NCBI GenBank assembly: GCA_000403315.2
Contig: KE159636.1
Span: 959,358-1,023,357, forward strand
DNA length: 64,000 bases
Direction: 5' to 3'
Source of the DNA: Lachnospiraceae bacterium A2
GTDB taxonomy: Bacteria > Bacillota > Clostridia > Lachnospirales > Lachnospiraceae
Shown here: in pieces, positions 46,004 to 52,926 of the stretch
How the letters are laid out: the number at the start of each line of letters is the position of its first letter
Numbering within the stretch: position 1 is the first letter of the stretch
Notes under the pieces: model-generated
Told to the model about the DNA's origin: nothing
Seen by the model: only the letters and a program-made list of their open reading frames with translations
Databases searched by the model: none
Position numbers and translations under genes: made by a program

Positions 46004-46678
46004 ATGACAGATAAGCTGGAACTGAATACCAATGCATACCTTCCGCTGCGGGACGTGGTGTTCCACACCCTCCGGGAAGCTATCCTGAAAGGGGAATTAA
46101 AGCCGGGGGAACGCCTGATGGAACTGCAGCTTGCATCGAAGCTGGGAGTGAGCCGCACCCCAATCCGGGAGGCTATCCGTATGCTGGAACTGGAAGGGCT
46201 GGCGGTAACGACCCCGAGGAAAGGGGCGGAGGTAGCCAAAATGACGGAGAAGGACATGGAAGACGTGCTCCAGATCCGCAAGGCGCTGGATGAACTGGCG
46301 GTAGGGCTGGCCTGTGAAAATATGGGAGAGGAAGAACTTGCAAAGCTTTCGGTAGCATTGGAAAATTTTGAGGAAAGCACTAGAAGCGGGAATGTGAAGC
46401 GGATTGCCCAGGCAGACGTGGAATTCCATGACGCCATCTATCAGGCGGCGGATAACCCGAAACTGGTGAACATGCTGAATAATCTCCGGGAGCAGATGTA
46501 CCGCTACCGGGTGGAATACCTGAAAAATGACAGCGTTTACCCCAGGCTGATTGAGGAGCACAAGGAAATTTTTGAAGGGCTGAAGCGTGGGGATAAGCAG
46601 ACGGTGGTGGAAATTGTAAGCCACCATGTGGAAAATCAGGAGCTTATGGTGAAAAATATTATCCAAGAGCAGGAATAA
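46004..46678 (+). CDS. GntR-family transcriptional regulator, FadR subgroup
   Basis: 224-residue regulator: N-terminal GntR winged helix (about residues 10-75; PGERLMELQLASKLGVSRTP around the recognition helix) and a C-terminal all-helical FCD ligand-binding domain (about 85-215; DVLQIRKALDELAVGLA, the metal/ligand His residues in DVEFHDAIYQAA and VSHHVENQELM). AAGGAGGTGGAGA precedes the ATG. It stands alone between ispE and the germination genes with a terminator behind it. The ligand, usually an organic acid or sugar acid in this subgroup, cannot be named. Confidence 0.9.
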   Translation: MTDKLELNTNAYLPLRDVVFHTLREAILKGELKPGERLMELQLASKLGVSRTPIREAIRMLELEGLAVTTPRKGAEVAKMTEKDMEDVLQIRKALDELAVGLACENMGEEELAKLSVALENFEESTRSGNVKRIAQADVEFHDAIYQAADNPKLVNMLNNLREQMYRYRVEYLKNDSVYPRLIEEHKEIFEGLKRGDKQTVVEIVSHHVENQELMVKNIIQEQE

Positions 46679-46713
46679 AAAGGAAAATCTGGGAAAACAT
46701 AATAATAAATGAG

Positions 46714-46744
46714 AAAAAGGATAGGCAAATGCTTATCCTTTTTT
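46714..46744 (+). terminator. intrinsic terminator after the GntR-family gene
   Basis: AAAAAGGATA-GGC (46714-46726) pairs with GC-TTATCCTTTT, followed by TTTT. A clear terminator before the germination genes. Confidence 0.75.
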
Positions 46745-46764
46745 GATGGGAACAGGAGGATGGC

Positions 46765-48267
46765 ATGGCAGTTCAGGTAACTTCGGATTTGCAGGAAAAT
46801 ATCAGGCAGTTTGAGGAACTTTTTTCTGACTGTGCAGATATTAAAAAAAGAAAAATAAAGGTAGGGCAAAAGCTGGGACGGGAGTGCTATATTGCATACA
46901 TTGAGGTATCTATCAGCAATGTCGACTGGAAAGACTCCGCAGTGGGGAAGCTGCTGCAGACCCTCAGGGGGCTCCCGGAGGAGGAGCTTGTCCAGTATGT
47001 GGAGCAGAATGTGGAGGACATTTCTGATTCCCAGCCCTTTGGTACAATTGAGGATGCAGCCCAGGGGATGCTGACAGGGGATGCGCTGTTTTTCCTGGAC
47101 GGCTATGCAAAGGCGCTGAAAATTCCCGACAAAGGCTATCCTGGGCGGGGCGTTTATGAAACGGAATCAGAAAAAGTCATCCGGGGTTCTAACGAGGGAT
47201 TTTCCGAATCCATCAAGCTGAATACGGCATTAATCCGGAAACGGCTCCGTAGCCCCCATGTGAAGGTAAAAGAAAGTTTTGTTGGGAAGCGGACCCAGAC
47301 AAATGTGGATCTTGTTTACTTAAAGGATTTAATCCATCCGGGCATGCTGGAGGAAATCGAAAAACGCCTTGGGGAATTTGAGATTGACGGCGCACTGGAC
47401 AGCGGGATTATTGAGCAGCTTACAGAAAAGCGGAAATATTCCCCGTTTCCCCAGTTCCAGACCACCCAGCGGCCGGACCGGGCGGCTATGGCTATTTTGG
47501 AAGGGAGGATTGTGCTGCTGTCGGACAATTCCCCGGTGGCCCTTATCCTCCCAGCCACTTACAATACTTTTATCCAGACCAGCGACGACTATTACAGCCG
47601 CTGGGAGATTGCTTCGTTTACAAGGATGCTCCGGTATTTGGCATCTTTTCTGGCGATGGCGTTTCCCGGTCTGTACCTTGCCATGACGAATTTCCACACC
47701 CAGATTGTCCCTACGGATTTGCTGCTTTCCTTAGCGGCGGCAAGGCAGGGGGTGCCGTTCCCGGCGGCGGTGGAAATCGTCTTGATGGAGGTAGCATTTG
47801 AGCTGCTGCGGGAAGCAGGGGTCCGGCTGCCGGGAGCCAACGGCAACACGATTGGGATTGTAGGGGGCCTGATTATTGGGCAGGCGGCGGTGGATGCAAA
47901 TATTGTGAGCCCCATTGTAGTGATTGTGGTGGCTTTGACAGCCCTTTGTTCCTTTGCAGTGCCAAATGAAGAATTTGCCACAGCTTTCCGCATTTTAAAA
48001 TTTTTGTTTATTTTCCTGTGCAGTACCCTGGGGTTTTTCGGCTTTTTGGTGGGGATGTTAGGGATCTTAATCCACCTGTCCCATATGGAAAGCTTTGGGA
48101 TCCCGTACCTTGCGCCTTTTGTGGGGGCAGATTTGAATGGATACCGGGATGAGCGGGACACGTTCCTGAGGCTCCCCTTGGGTTTCCTGAAAAAACGGCC
48201 TATTTATACAAGGGATGGGGCGCGCACAAGGCTGAAACTGAAAAACCAGACAAAGCAGAAGCCGTAG
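46765..48267 (+). CDS. spore germination protein, GerA family A subunit
   Basis: 500-residue A subunit of a nutrient germinant receptor in the inner spore membrane. The N-terminal soluble domain (about 1-250) includes VIRGSNEGFSESIKLNTALIRKRLRSP split over the family's usual block; four or five membrane helices follow (about 285-470), with NTIGIVGGLIIGQAAVDANI and the helix after PFPAAVEIVLMEVAFELL. The basic C-terminus (KRPIYTRDGARTRLKLK) is typical. AGGAGG precedes the start. The B and C subunits follow as one fused gene 24 bases downstream. The germinant is unknown. Confidence 0.93.
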   Translation: MAVQVTSDLQENIRQFEELFSDCADIKKRKIKVGQKLGRECYIAYIEVSISNVDWKDSAVGKLLQTLRGLPEEELVQYVEQNVEDISDSQPFGTIEDAAQGMLTGDALFFLDGYAKALKIPDKGYPGRGVYETESEKVIRGSNEGFSESIKLNTALIRKRLRSPHVKVKESFVGKRTQTNVDLVYLKDLIHPGMLEEIEKRLGEFEIDGALDSGIIEQLTEKRKYSPFPQFQTTQRPDRAAMAILEGRIVLLSDNSPVALILPATYNTFIQTSDDYYSRWEIASFTRMLRYLASFLAMAFPGLYLAMTNFHTQIVPTDLLLSLAAARQGVPFPAAVEIVLMEVAFELLREAGVRLPGANGNTIGIVGGLIIGQAAVDANIVSPIVVIVVALTALCSFAVPNEEFATAFRILKFLFIFLCSTLGFFGFLVGMLGILIHLSHMESFGIPYLAPFVGADLNGYRDERDTFLRLPLGFLKKRPIYTRDGARTRLKLKNQTKQKP

Positions 48268-48291
48268 GAATTTGTAAGGAGGTTCAATTGT

Positions 48292-50640
48292 ATGTTTGCG
48301 GATAATTGGAAAATATCGGTGCGGCAGGTGCGCAGGCTTTTAATCCTTGATATTTTTGGGATGAGCAGCCTGATGCTCCCGGGCATCCTGTCATCCCTGA
48401 CTGGGGCGGACGGGGTATTCTGCCTTCTGCTTGGGATGGCAGGGGGGATGCTGCTGGTGTGGCTGATGGGGAAAAATTTGCGGAATATGGAGGGGGAAAC
48501 CTCCCGGCCTGAGGGATGTGGGCAGGCTGGGGAACAGGCGTCCCAGCACATAGGGAGGGATTATTACCAGTACATGAAAGATACGGTTGGGGAGCTTGCG
48601 GGGGATATTTTTATGGTATTTTATTACCTGTATTTCCTGAGCCTTTGCGGTTTTGTGCTGTATCAGGCCACTGCCCTTGTGCTGACATGGCTGCTGCCGG
48701 AAGGGTCCTATTTCTGGGTCAGCCTTTTGCTGCTGGCCTTGGCGGCTTATGGGACAGTGCGCGGGATTGAGGGGCGGGCAAGGGTCTATGAAATTATTTT
48801 CTGGTTCCTTGGGGTGCCGCTGCTTGCCATGCTGCTTTTGGCGCTGCGGGAAGTCCGCCCGGATTATTGGACCCCTGTGATGTATTCCGGGGGCTGGGAA
48901 TTTTTCAGCGGGGGCATAGGATATCTGGTGTTCCTGCTGCCCTTGACGGCAGTCCTGTTCTTGAAGCCTTTCTGCCAGAACCCCGGAAAGCTGGCTTCCT
49001 GTGCCCGATGGGTACTGCTGGGGGTTACAGCCCTAAATTTGCTGATTTATTTAATCCTCCTTGGGGTGTTTGGGCAAAATACCATGGGGGTACTGAAACG
49101 GCCAGTGGTTACGCTGATGAGCATGATAAACATTCCGGGAGGTTTTTTTACAAGGCAGGACGTGATTATGGTTTCTGTTTGGTTTTTTGCGCTGTTTGCC
49201 CTAATGCATACGGGAGTGTTCCAGAGCACGCTGATTTTGAAAGAATTGTTCCATGAGTCTGGGAACCGCATTAGCATGGGCATTTCGCTGGTTCTGGCTT
49301 TTGCCTCAGGGATTGGCTTTTTCAGGAATCGGTTTTTGGCAGAACTGTATGGGATTTACCAGAAATGGGTTGCGCTGCCGGGAATGGCGGTGATTTTGCT
49401 GGCGCTTCTGCTGGTTCACCGTATGAAGAATCGGCAGGGAAGGAAAATGGAAAAGGGATGTGATCCCAAAATAACGCCATCAGGCAGGGGGATCCGGAAA
49501 AAGAAAGCGCTGACGCTGTTTTTTGCAGTTGGGGCCATGGGGAATTTTGCTGGCTGCGCGTCCACGGAATTGGAGCACCGCAGTTTCCCGCTGGCAGTAG
49601 GGATTGATCTGCAGGGGGAACCAGAGGAAGATACTGCGGAAGAAGGCTTTGGGGAAAATGCATCCCAAGGACAAGGCGGGCAAAAGCCGGGGCTGGTGGT
49701 AAGCTTTGATTTTCCAGACCTGGCGCAGGTTTCGGAAAAGGGAAATACGGTGGACACTGCCATGGGACTGTCGCTGGAGGGCGCAGATATGTACCATGTG
49801 GAGAAAGCTTACGAGAATAACACCAACCGTATTTTGGACTACAACCATATGAAGGCCGTTGTGATAGGGGAACCTGTTTTTTCCGATAAAGAGCGGCTCC
49901 GGGCATTGCTGTCCGCCTGGGAGCAGCGGGAGGCTTCGGCAAGGAATACAAGCCTTCTGGTGGGGAAAGGCTCTGCAGCAGGGATTTTAAGCCTGACGGA
50001 AGAAACAGAAGGCTCCATGGGGACGTATCTGGAAGAAATGCTGGAGAGCCAGAAGGACTTTAAGCAGAATAAAATTGCCACAGTTGGGAACCTGATGAAC
50101 CAGTGGCACAACCAGGATGAACTTCTGCTGATCCCTGTGCTGGAGGAAAATGGGAACCGTCCGGTGGTCGGCGGATATGCGGCAGTTTCGGATTTTAATT
50201 ACCGGGGAACGCTGTCTGTGGAGGATGCCATGCTGGCATATCTGAGCCAAAACCTGCTGGAGAAATTTACCTGTGAAATTTCCGGGAATGTGGTGGAAAT
50301 TTCCGGTATCCAGGTAAGCCTGTCCATCCGCAGGGAAGGGGAACTCCCGCTGGCGGAAGTGAAAATTTCCGGGAAAGGGAAGCTGAAAACCGGGCAGATG
50401 AATTCCTATTCCGAACAGCGGCGGCTGGAGAAAAAGTTGGGGGAACAGCTTACGGCGGACCTGGCGGAAGCAGCAGGACGGCTGCAGGAGGAGCTTGGGA
50501 TTGACATGACAAACAGCTTTATCTCTCTTGGCGGGCAGGACAGGGAATTGTATGGGATTTACCAGGGGCAGCCGGATGCGTATAACGGTAAGGTGCAGCA
50601 GGTATTCCAGGTGGAGGTTTCCATGCTGAACTGGGAGTAA
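48292..50640 (+). CDS. fused spore germination protein, GerB permease plus GerC lipoprotein
   Basis: One uninterrupted frame of 782 residues joins two proteins that are normally separate. Residues 1-380 are the GerB permease (endospore germination permease family; about ten helices, e.g. LLILDIFGMSSLMLPGIL). Residues 386-782 are a GerC-type Ger(x)C protein: basic segment, hydrophobic stretch, lipobox FAGC with Cys 422, then AVGIDLQGEP and the C-terminal domain with FTCEISGNVVEISGI. An internal ATG at 49447 (residue 386) has AGGGAAGG at 49436-49443, so a free 397-residue GerC lipoprotein could also be made. AGGAGG precedes the first ATG. With the A subunit upstream it forms a complete receptor. 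Confidence 0.85.
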   Translation: MFADNWKISVRQVRRLLILDIFGMSSLMLPGILSSLTGADGVFCLLLGMAGGMLLVWLMGKNLRNMEGETSRPEGCGQAGEQASQHIGRDYYQYMKDTVGELAGDIFMVFYYLYFLSLCGFVLYQATALVLTWLLPEGSYFWVSLLLLALAAYGTVRGIEGRARVYEIIFWFLGVPLLAMLLLALREVRPDYWTPVMYSGGWEFFSGGIGYLVFLLPLTAVLFLKPFCQNPGKLASCARWVLLGVTALNLLIYLILLGVFGQNTMGVLKRPVVTLMSMINIPGGFFTRQDVIMVSVWFFALFALMHTGVFQSTLILKELFHESGNRISMGISLVLAFASGIGFFRNRFLAELYGIYQKWVALPGMAVILLALLLVHRMKNRQGRKMEKGCDPKITPSGRGIRKKKALTLFFAVGAMGNFAGCASTELEHRSFPLAVGIDLQGEPEEDTAEEGFGENASQGQGGQKPGLVVSFDFPDLAQVSEKGNTVDTAMGLSLEGADMYHVEKAYENNTNRILDYNHMKAVVIGEPVFSDKERLRALLSAWEQREASARNTSLLVGKGSAAGILSLTEETEGSMGTYLEEMLESQKDFKQNKIATVGNLMNQWHNQDELLLIPVLEENGNRPVVGGYAAVSDFNYRGTLSVEDAMLAYLSQNLLEKFTCEISGNVVEISGIQVSLSIRREGELPLAEVKISGKGKLKTGQMNSYSEQRRLEKKLGEQLTADLAEAAGRLQEELGIDMTNSFISLGGQDRELYGIYQGQPDAYNGKVQQVFQVEVSMLNWE

Positions 50641-50813
50641 ATGCGAATCCGTTTTGGCTTTGGCGGATGCCTGATACCCTTCTCCCCAGTCCCACAAAGC
50701 GGCAGGGATGGGCTCCAGGCTCCTGCCAAGGGCTGTCAGGGAGTATTCTGCCCTTGGCGGCTCTTGGGCATTCGCCTTGCAGCTTACAAGGCCGCCATCT
50801 TTCACAGGGAGCT

Positions 50814-51644
50814 TCAGCCATGAGAAGCCAACGGCTCAAATGCACGGATACACGCCCCATTTTTTGACTTATCAAAAACGGCGTAACATACAGTTTTAAA
50901 ATACTGGCCCATGCCTTCCCCAAAAAGTTCTTTCCACCAAGCTGCCACCAGCCGTGGGTCATTTCGGAACACGCCGCAGCCATAAGCCCCAAGCACCAGA
51001 TGCTTTGCTCCCTGTTCTGCAAAAATTGCAAGTGCCAGTTGCATCCGCCGCCGCATTGCCTGCTTCGCCTGTCCTTCATCTTCACCTTTTAACAAAACCT
51101 GGCCCATATTTACTGCTGGCAGCGTCAGCACGGATGCTTTCACAGCAGGGTGCACAAGCCGGAACCGCCCATTCCGGAAAAAGAGCACATCCGGGGAATA
51201 GATGGCATGGTCTGTATACACCATAGAGCTTTGCAGGCGGTTGTTGCGGTAATACTCCTCATGTGCCGTCAAGGTCGGGTATAAAGTGCTGGATGCGGCA
51301 AGGCTTTCTTCCTGTGCCATTGCCCCGTTGAGGAATCCCCCTCCCGGGTTTTTGGCGCTTGCAAAGTTGAGTACGCCGATGCTGTTTTTCCCTTCTTCTG
51401 CCAGCTTCCGTATTGCATCTACGGTAGATATATTTTCCACATATGCCGGACAGGCTTTCGGCGAGTGGTTCCCTGATATGCTGTATTTTCTTAGCAGTGC
51501 TTCCCCCTGGCCTGGTGTGAGCAGGAAACTGCCCTTTATGGATGCTTCCATGTCCAGGCGGATCTCTATCTGCTTTCCTTCAAATTCATAAAACCCTTGT
51601 TCCATGATTTTTAATGTTTCCCTTGCAGTTGCTTTTCTGTCCAT
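50814..51644 (-). CDS. TIGR02452 family protein (macro-like, poly-ADP-ribose hydrolase related)
   Basis: 276-residue protein of the TIGR02452 group, related to microbial poly(ADP-ribose) glycohydrolases with a macro-domain fold. Key blocks: VLNFASAKNPGGGFLNGAM (ADP-ribose loop), AQEESLAASSTLY (the QEE catalytic-type Glu pair) and LVLGAYGCGVFRNDP. The start ATG 51644 is chosen for its AAAGGA site; the longer open frame to 51869 is not supported. A role in removing ADP-ribose from proteins or nucleic acid, or as part of NAD-related defence, is possible from the family; the neighbours give no help. Confidence 0.85.
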   Translation of the reverse strand: MDRKATARETLKIMEQGFYEFEGKQIEIRLDMEASIKGSFLLTPGQGEALLRKYSISGNHSPKACPAYVENISTVDAIRKLAEEGKNSIGVLNFASAKNPGGGFLNGAMAQEESLAASSTLYPTLTAHEEYYRNNRLQSSMVYTDHAIYSPDVLFFRNGRFRLVHPAVKASVLTLPAVNMGQVLLKGEDEGQAKQAMRRRMQLALAIFAEQGAKHLVLGAYGCGVFRNDPRLVAAWWKELFGEGMGQYFKTVCYAVFDKSKNGACIRAFEPLASHG

Positions 51645-52554: not shown

Positions 52555-52926
52555 TTGTGTTTGATTTGCCGTGTGATGAAGCCCGGGGGCATTTTCATTA
52601 CAGAGCAGGTTGGCGCGGAAAATGACAGGGAACTGGTGGAACTGCTGCTGGGCAGTGCGCCGGAGCTCCCATTTCCAGACCAGTATCTTAGGATTGCAAA
52701 GGCGGCTTTTGAGGGGAGGGGGTTTTCCACCTTGGAAGCAGAAGAAGCATTCCGCCCAATTAAGTTTTGGGATGTGGGCGCCCTTGTCTGGTTTGCACGG
52801 ATTATTGAATGGGAATTTCCGGATTTTTCCGTAGAAAGCTGCTTGGGGAACCTTTACCGCGCACAGGAAATTCTGGAACGGGAAGGGGTAATTGAAGGGA
52901 GCATCCTTACCAATCCCGCTCCCTAA
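52555..52926 (+). pseudogene. remnant of a class I methyltransferase
   Basis: The product corresponds to the second half of a SAM-dependent methyltransferase: RVMKPGGIFITEQVG is the strand-4/5 region, RPIKFWDVGALVWFARIIEW the following block. The N-terminal half with the SAM-binding GxGxG motif is missing; upstream bases carry no homologous reading frame. The end (SILTNPAP) runs 20 bases into the convergent DUF5713 gene and lacks the usual last strand, so both ends are lost. Confidence 0.7.

What the first reader, a model, noticed from the sequence alone, without database searches (positions are those of the whole stretch)
48292..50640. GerB permease and GerC lipoprotein fused into one gene, with a possible internal start
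Germinant receptors are normally made of separate A, B and C proteins. Here B and C lie in one open frame of 782 residues, with no stop or frameshift at the join. The C part keeps a basic segment, hydrophobic stretch and lipobox (Cys 422), which would be buried inside the fusion unless cleaved. An in-frame ATG at 49447 with an AGGGAAGG site could also give a free 397-residue lipoprotein. Either the receptor has fixed 1:1 B:C stoichiometry, or two products come from one frame.
Basis: partly seen in the sequence, partly recalled or inferred. Interest (0 to 1): 0.65.

Follow-up and report, generated by a model that had tools for sequence, protein, structure and literature searches.

The report
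Fused GerB-GerC with internal lipobox
Two subunits of a spore's nutrient sensor are written as one gene here, as seems to have happened many separate times in this bacterial family, and the lipid-attachment site kept in the middle suggests that the long protein is lipidated and perhaps cut into two afterwards.

Summary
In detail: 48292-50640 is one frame of 782 residues, GerB permease then GerC with a lipobox at Cys422, behind gerA. All 28 congeners searched keep gerB and gerC apart in different frames, so this fusion is recent or, less likely, a sequence error. Yet fusion is common nearby: 27 of 55 A-B-C operons fetched from other genera of the family are fused, and a GerA tree needs 19 fused/split changes, 15 on starred branches. 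Over 30 fusions the lipobox Cys is kept in 25, rank 21 of 782 columns, while the ribosome-binding site of gerC is gone (median -3.85 kcal/mol; split genes -10.3 and -11.3). In 15 independent pairs fusion goes with loss of that site in about 12, against it in none; it shows no link with lipobox loss. Best reading: one translated chain, lipidated at the internal Cys and probably cut there by signal peptidase II. Five fusions lack the Cys and may stay joined. Internal initiation is unlikely in general and weak here. Lipidation and cleavage are untested.

The parts
46765..48267 (+). gerA: receptor A subunit (500 aa), first gene of the operon
   Evidence: Pfam GerA E 5.6e-167; orthologue upstream of gerB in the 28 congener loci
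48292..50640 (+). gerBC: single frame of 782 residues, GerB followed by GerC
48292..49446 (+). GerB part, residues 1-385 (permease; Pfam Spore_permease at residues 86-339)
   Evidence: Foldseek APC-fold hits
49420..49506 (+). basic linker, residues 377-405, after the last GerB helix
   Evidence: 12 K/R and 2 D/E in residues 376-405; low model confidence from about residue 385 on
49436..49449 (+). AGGGAAGG and in-frame ATG (49447): weak, residual gerC start
   Evidence: Shine-Dalgarno energy -6.8 kcal/mol; 28 congener gerC starts -8.4 to -12.5
49507..49557 (+). internal lipoprotein signal: hydrophobic stretch (residues 406-421) and lipobox FAGC with Cys422 (49555-49557)
49558..50637 (+). GerC ectodomain, residues 423-782
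   Evidence: Pfam Spore_GerAC_N at 424-618, weak Spore_GerAC at 636-739; Foldseek best hit 3n54 GerBC

Best explanation
gerBC is translated as one chain. GerB inserts in the membrane; the former GerC signal peptide then works as an internal export signal behind a basic cytoplasmic loop and brings GerC to the outer face. Because its lipobox is intact, Lgt attaches diacylglycerol to Cys422 and signal peptidase II (LspA) probably cuts in front of it, so that the spore still holds GerB and a separate lipid-anchored GerC, made in equal amounts. In this family such gene-level fusion has arisen or been undone many times; here it is recent. Shown by sequence: one frame, the intact signal, lipobox conservation in fusions, loss of gerC translation starts in other fusions, repeated changes of state. 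Inferred: lipidation, cleavage, function as a receptor.
For: Recurrent fusion: 27 of 60 family loci fetched (27 of 55 with A-B-C order) have GerB and GerC in one frame; GerA trees need 19 changes of state, 15 forced by starred branches; two more fusions lie outside the family (L015 in another family of the order, L146 elsewhere in the class). In 30 fusions aligned, mean column identity 21%, the Cys422 column is Cys in 25, the Gly before it is kept in 27, rank 21 of 782. Uncharged stretch before the Cys: median 16 in fusions and in split family genes (Mann-Whitney p 0.83, regex-defined rows), 14.5 in split congeners. In three shared-fusion clades with full support (L089/L094/L096, L102/L106, L109/L121) all 7 keep the lipobox at 31-44% linker identity. 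The gerC Shine-Dalgarno is lost: median best energy -3.85 kcal/mol in 28 fusions, not stronger than 112 control windows in gerB (-4.35; p 0.057, towards weaker), against -11.3 in 28 split congeners and -10.3 in the 27 of 28 split family loci with a candidate. 15 independent pairs: fusion and loss of that site go the same way in about 12, opposite in 0, median p 0.0005; fusion and lipobox loss: about 12 no difference, 1.1 same, 1.9 opposite, p 1. The genome has one Lgt and two LspA-type genes.
Against: No protein data: lipidation and cleavage are inferred. A lipobox could be kept for lipidation without cutting. 5 of 30 fusions (L131, L132, L133, L143, L145) lack the Cys; in the shared-fusion clade L131/L132/L145 none of 3 keeps it, and in L122/L139/L133 2 of 3 do, so an uncut chain seems tolerated. 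A review suggests that some B. subtilis C subunits, GerKC above all, may not be cut (PMC11841064, passages). Whether LspA accepts a substrate behind a polytopic protein was not found in print here (listings). A poorly predicted linker in the model (pLDDT about 39-69 over residues 381-430) does not tell cut from uncut. In the window a weak internal start remains and all 28 congeners are split, so this one fusion could be a sequence error.
Confidence: 0.55

Rival explanations
1. Permanent chimera: the chain is not cut. The former signal peptide is an extra transmembrane helix, GerC hangs from GerB outside (with or without lipid on Cys422), and the receptor has fixed 1:1 B:C stoichiometry.
For: Topology allows it: basic loop, hydrophobic segment, then GerC. 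Five Cys-less fusions exist; the one modelled (L131) has a 32-residue helix at the join, at pLDDT about 38-53, against 9 residues in the window.
Against: Cys kept in 25 of 30 fusions, with the signal length of split genes, and no link between fusion and lipobox loss in 15 independent pairs.
Confidence: 0.25
2. Internal initiation: ribosomes also start at ATG 49447 and make a free 397-residue GerC prolipoprotein beside the fusion.
For: ATG in frame, 36 residues before the Cys, where nearby congeners have their best gerC start (25-40 residues before it in L020, L021, L025, L026, L032), with a partial Shine-Dalgarno of -6.8 kcal/mol. A TTG 53 residues before the Cys scores -8.1.
Against: Weaker than the best start of each of 28 congeners (-8.4 to -12.5); no gerB stop is left for coupled re-initiation; 26 of 28 fusions have no start as strong as -6.8. 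It can hold only as a leftover in this species.
Confidence: 0.12
3. The fusion in the window is a sequence or assembly error at the join; the real genes are separate.
For: All 28 congeners are split, gerC being in frame +1 (8) or +2 (20) of gerB, and in each a possible start codon overlaps gerB's end, so one indel suffices. The join keeps a start codon and a partial ribosome site.
Against: No gene on its coding strand was split between frames in comparisons with stretches of four congeners, about sixteen genes (one of them, 52564-52905, matches only in part and may be broken). From 49380 to the ATG no homopolymer is longer than four, though runs of five and six follow it. The join varies in length among the six relatives aligned. 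The same kind of fusion is in 27 other genomes of the family, one of them on a single 4.5-Mb contig (L089 in G316).
Confidence: 0.15

Closest known systems
GerA-type germinant receptors (GerAA/GerAB/GerAC of Bacillus subtilis)
   Same: Same three subunit families, operon order A-B-C (order in B. subtilis recalled); C with a lipobox; B with the APC-type permease fold.
   Different: B and C are one frame here; the known receptors are described as three separate proteins (PMC11841064 and PMC13170314, passages).
Other GerB-GerC fusions of the family found here (27 loci, e.g. L089, L094, L097)
   Same: Same order, GerB then GerC, and in 22 of the 27 a lipobox Cys at the join.
   Different: Most have a shorter gap from the end of the GerB match to the Cys (under the window's 45 residues in 26 of 29 other fusions; overlapping HMM ends make some values too small) and no strong gerC start left (exception L123).
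Cytochrome b/c1 precursor (fbcH) of Bradyrhizobium japonicum (recalled; not found in the library)
   Same: As recalled: a polytopic protein followed by an exported subunit with an internal signal, cut into two subunits after translation.
   Different: As recalled: cut by the ordinary leader peptidase, no lipid; unrelated proteins.

Membership tests
GerA-type germinant receptor | A subunit of the GerA family in the operon | tested here: met
   Pfam GerA 556 bits; below the cut-off of the NCBIfam equivalog for GerXA (328.6 of 850)
GerA-type germinant receptor | B subunit: spore permease with APC-type fold | tested here: met
   Pfam 123.5 bits; Foldseek hits to AdiC and other APC transporters. 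Below the NCBIfam TIGR00912 cut-off (87.2 of 139.55)
GerA-type germinant receptor | C subunit: GerAC fold with lipobox | tested here: met
   Pfam GerAC_N 71.6 bits; 3n54 is the best Foldseek hit; FAGC lipobox. Below the NCBIfam TIGR02887 cut-off (75.2 of 163.25)
GerA-type germinant receptor | B and C encoded by separate genes | tested here: not met
   one frame of 782 codons; whether the proteins end up separate is not known
GerA-type germinant receptor | forespore expression and a role in germination | not testable with these tools
   no expression or mutant data
Polyprotein cut at an internal lipobox | single open frame with an intact internal lipoprotein signal | tested here: met
Polyprotein cut at an internal lipobox | no separate translation start for the second product | tested here: inconclusive
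   no start as strong as -6.8 kcal/mol in 26 of 28 fusions; a weak one remains in the window
Polyprotein cut at an internal lipobox | Lgt and LspA encoded in the genome | tested here: met
   PF01790 one gene, PF01252 two genes
Polyprotein cut at an internal lipobox | cleavage before the Cys | not testable with these tools
   needs protein data

The most novel reading that the evidence does not exclude
GerB-GerC is a bacterial polyprotein that has arisen repeatedly and is matured by the lipoprotein pathway: the operon can switch between two genes and one because the internal lipobox lets LspA undo the fusion at the protein level, so that subunit stoichiometry is set by one translation event while the mature receptor stays three separate proteins.
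Probability: 0.45. Interest if true: 0.75.

Novelty: new variant of a known kind. Interest (0 to 1): 0.6.

Why it matters
Current models of germinant receptors take A, B and C as separate proteins, with C forming a ring outside, and leave open whether five or six copies assemble (PMC11841064 and PMC13170314, passages). Natural fusions in 27 of 55 fetched A-B-C operons of this family constrain B:C stoichiometry and place C next to B. If the chain is cut at the lipobox, it would be a polyprotein processed by signal peptidase II behind a polytopic membrane protein, a use of that enzyme that the listings of two paper searches did not show. Fusions may also be missed or misnamed by orthologue searches that filter on protein length or coverage.

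Tried and rejected
Internal promoter: none found on the + strand near the join; 4 promoter-like sites in 46500-50900 against 3.5 expected. RNA family in 46600-50700: none. PDB by sequence with the GerC part: one weak cohesin match, E 0.085; the fold comparison did better. Long-frame hits L046 and L047 might have been fusions; from reading their translation they are amino-acid transporters of another kind. Of eight class-wide loci with long GerC frames that were fetched, one (L146) is a fusion and seven (L147-L153) are not.

Corrections and limits. The lipobox regex missed L141 and L142 (late HMM match) and L092 and L113 (Trp before the Gly) and accepted L143; by regex the family shows 21 of 27 fused and 22 of 28 split (Fisher p 1), after correction by alignment and eye 22 of 27 and 24 of 28 (used). 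The -6.8 kcal/mol threshold was taken from the window's own ATG; under the best-start rule the window itself counts as having a start (the TTG at -8.1). Trees are quick ones (SH-aLRT only) of one protein, in which starred branches deserve less trust; five A-C-B loci and the long branch L137 were dropped. L015 and L146 are not in the trees. The class survey listed only its best matches, so fusions outside the family are undercounted; three family matches (G092, G122, G192) were not fetched.

Literature: ten searches, six on germinant receptors, two on lipobox or internal signals, two on fbcH. Their listings named no natural GerB-GerC fusion; five papers were looked at by passages only. The library holds only openly licensed papers, so this is no proof of novelty.

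Full report
What is there. The frame 48292-50640 is open for 782 codons. It carries a Spore_permease domain at residues 86-339, a Spore_GerAC_N domain at 424-618 and a C-terminal GerAC match below its cut-off. gerA lies just upstream at 46765-48267. The genome's only Spore_permease match is this one. The AlphaFold model (alignment A2, 68 rows) has mean pLDDT 89.6 and pTM 0.89; its best PDB match is the GerBC crystal structure 3n54, followed by APC-fold transporters. Between the halves, residues 391-420 are predicted at pLDDT about 39-52. There lie a very basic loop (12 K/R and 2 D/E in residues 376-405), a 16-residue uncharged stretch and the lipobox FAGC with Cys422.

Close relatives. Of 29 genomes of the genus all 29 have GerC. 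In 28 of 28 congeners gerB and gerC are separate, gerC in frame +1 (8) or +2 (20) of gerB, with a possible start codon that overlaps gerB's end. Only the window is fused. The nearest congeners are about 72-74% identical in GerB. The join differs in sequence and length among the six relatives aligned. The fusion is therefore recent, by a change of length at the join, or an error. Against error: compared with stretches of four congeners, no gene of the window was split between frames on its coding strand; four flagged splits lie on frames antisense to genes; one gene, at 52564-52905, matches only in part.

The family. Of 299 genomes of the family 65 have GerAC_N matches. Of the 63 outside the genus I fetched 60. 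Five have order A-C-B and form their own GerA clade; 55 have order A-B-C, and 27 of these 55 carry GerB and GerC in one frame. On a GerA tree of 89 loci the fused or split state needs 19 changes, 15 of them forced by starred branches; 83 loci, without the A-C-B clade and one long branch, give the same numbers. Gains and losses cannot be told apart. Outside the family I saw two fusions: L015, one of 16 loci checked from other families of the order and near kin, and L146, one of eight fetched after the class survey, whose list was cut.

What fusion changes and what it does not. I aligned the 30 fusions (27 family, 2 others, window). Mean column identity is 21%. At the window's Cys422 column 25 of 30 have Cys; the Gly before it is kept in 27; the column ranks 21st of 782. 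Cys is absent in L131, L132, L133, L143 and L145. By regex the uncharged stretch before the Cys has median 16 in fusions, 16 in split family genes and 14.5 in split congeners. Of five fused clades looked at, three keep the lipobox in all members (7 of 7), one in 2 of 3, one in 0 of 3. By contrast the translation start is lost. The best Shine-Dalgarno energy in front of any in-frame start before the signal has median -11.3 in 28 split congeners, -10.3 in 27 split family loci (a 28th had no candidate), and -3.85 in 28 fusions; 112 control windows inside gerB of fused genes give -4.35 (27 of 112 at or below -6.8; fusions 2 of 28, the window and L123). With 15 independent pairs on starred branches, fusion and loss of this site go the same way in about 12 and the opposite way in none (median p 0.0005), while fusion and lipobox loss show no link (p 1). 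So fusions stop keeping a separate start for GerC but mostly go on keeping its lipoprotein signal.

Mechanism. The simplest account is one translation product whose internal signal is still lipidated and, as lipidated lipobox signals normally are (established knowledge), cut by LspA. The genome encodes Lgt and two LspA-type proteins. Lipidation without cutting, or a plain membrane tether, is not excluded; the five Cys-less fusions suggest that an uncut chain can work, and the one modelled (L131) has a 32-residue helix at the join, at low confidence. Internal initiation is not general; in the window a weak start remains at 49447, -6.8 against -12.5 for gerB's own start and -8.4 to -12.5 in congeners. 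That GerF (Lgt) lipidates C subunits and matters for germination is said in a review of B. subtilis (PMC11841064, passages), which also doubts cleavage of some C subunits; another paper describes C as a lipid-anchored peripheral protein in a ring outside (PMC13170314, passages).

Known or new. The listings of my ten paper searches named no natural GerB-GerC fusion, and the passages read in five papers did not mention one. A study of Anaerostipes reports GerAB homologues but no gerAC in its genomes (PMC12888040, passages); whether a fusion is the cause I did not test. The closest processing precedent, a cytochrome b/c1 precursor cut at an internal signal in Bradyrhizobium, is recalled and was not found in the library.

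Verdict. What makes it of interest is not a fixed stoichiometry alone but the contrast of lost translation starts and kept lipoboxes, which makes a polyprotein matured by the lipoprotein pathway a concrete, testable hypothesis.

Noticed in passing
L086-L145 (family loci): In 31 of 55 A-B-C operons the GerC match stops after its N-terminal part (HMM reach 210 or less of 342), in 13 of 27 fused and 18 of 28 split operons: a shortened C subunit seems common in this family.
   Followed up: partly
G000:C1:2632260-2632676 (L154) and G000:C1:1424485-1424898 (L155): The genome has two LspA-type (PF01252) genes, one clearly more divergent (145.8 and 92.4 bits).
   Followed up: no
window 52555-52926 +: A short frame matches only residues 132-245 of a 256-residue frame in G022; from reading its sequence it looks like a methyltransferase remnant.
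   Followed up: no
L087, L098, L104, L111, L126: Five family loci have gene order A-C-B and a GerA clade of their own, so two receptor lineages exist in the family.
   Followed up: no
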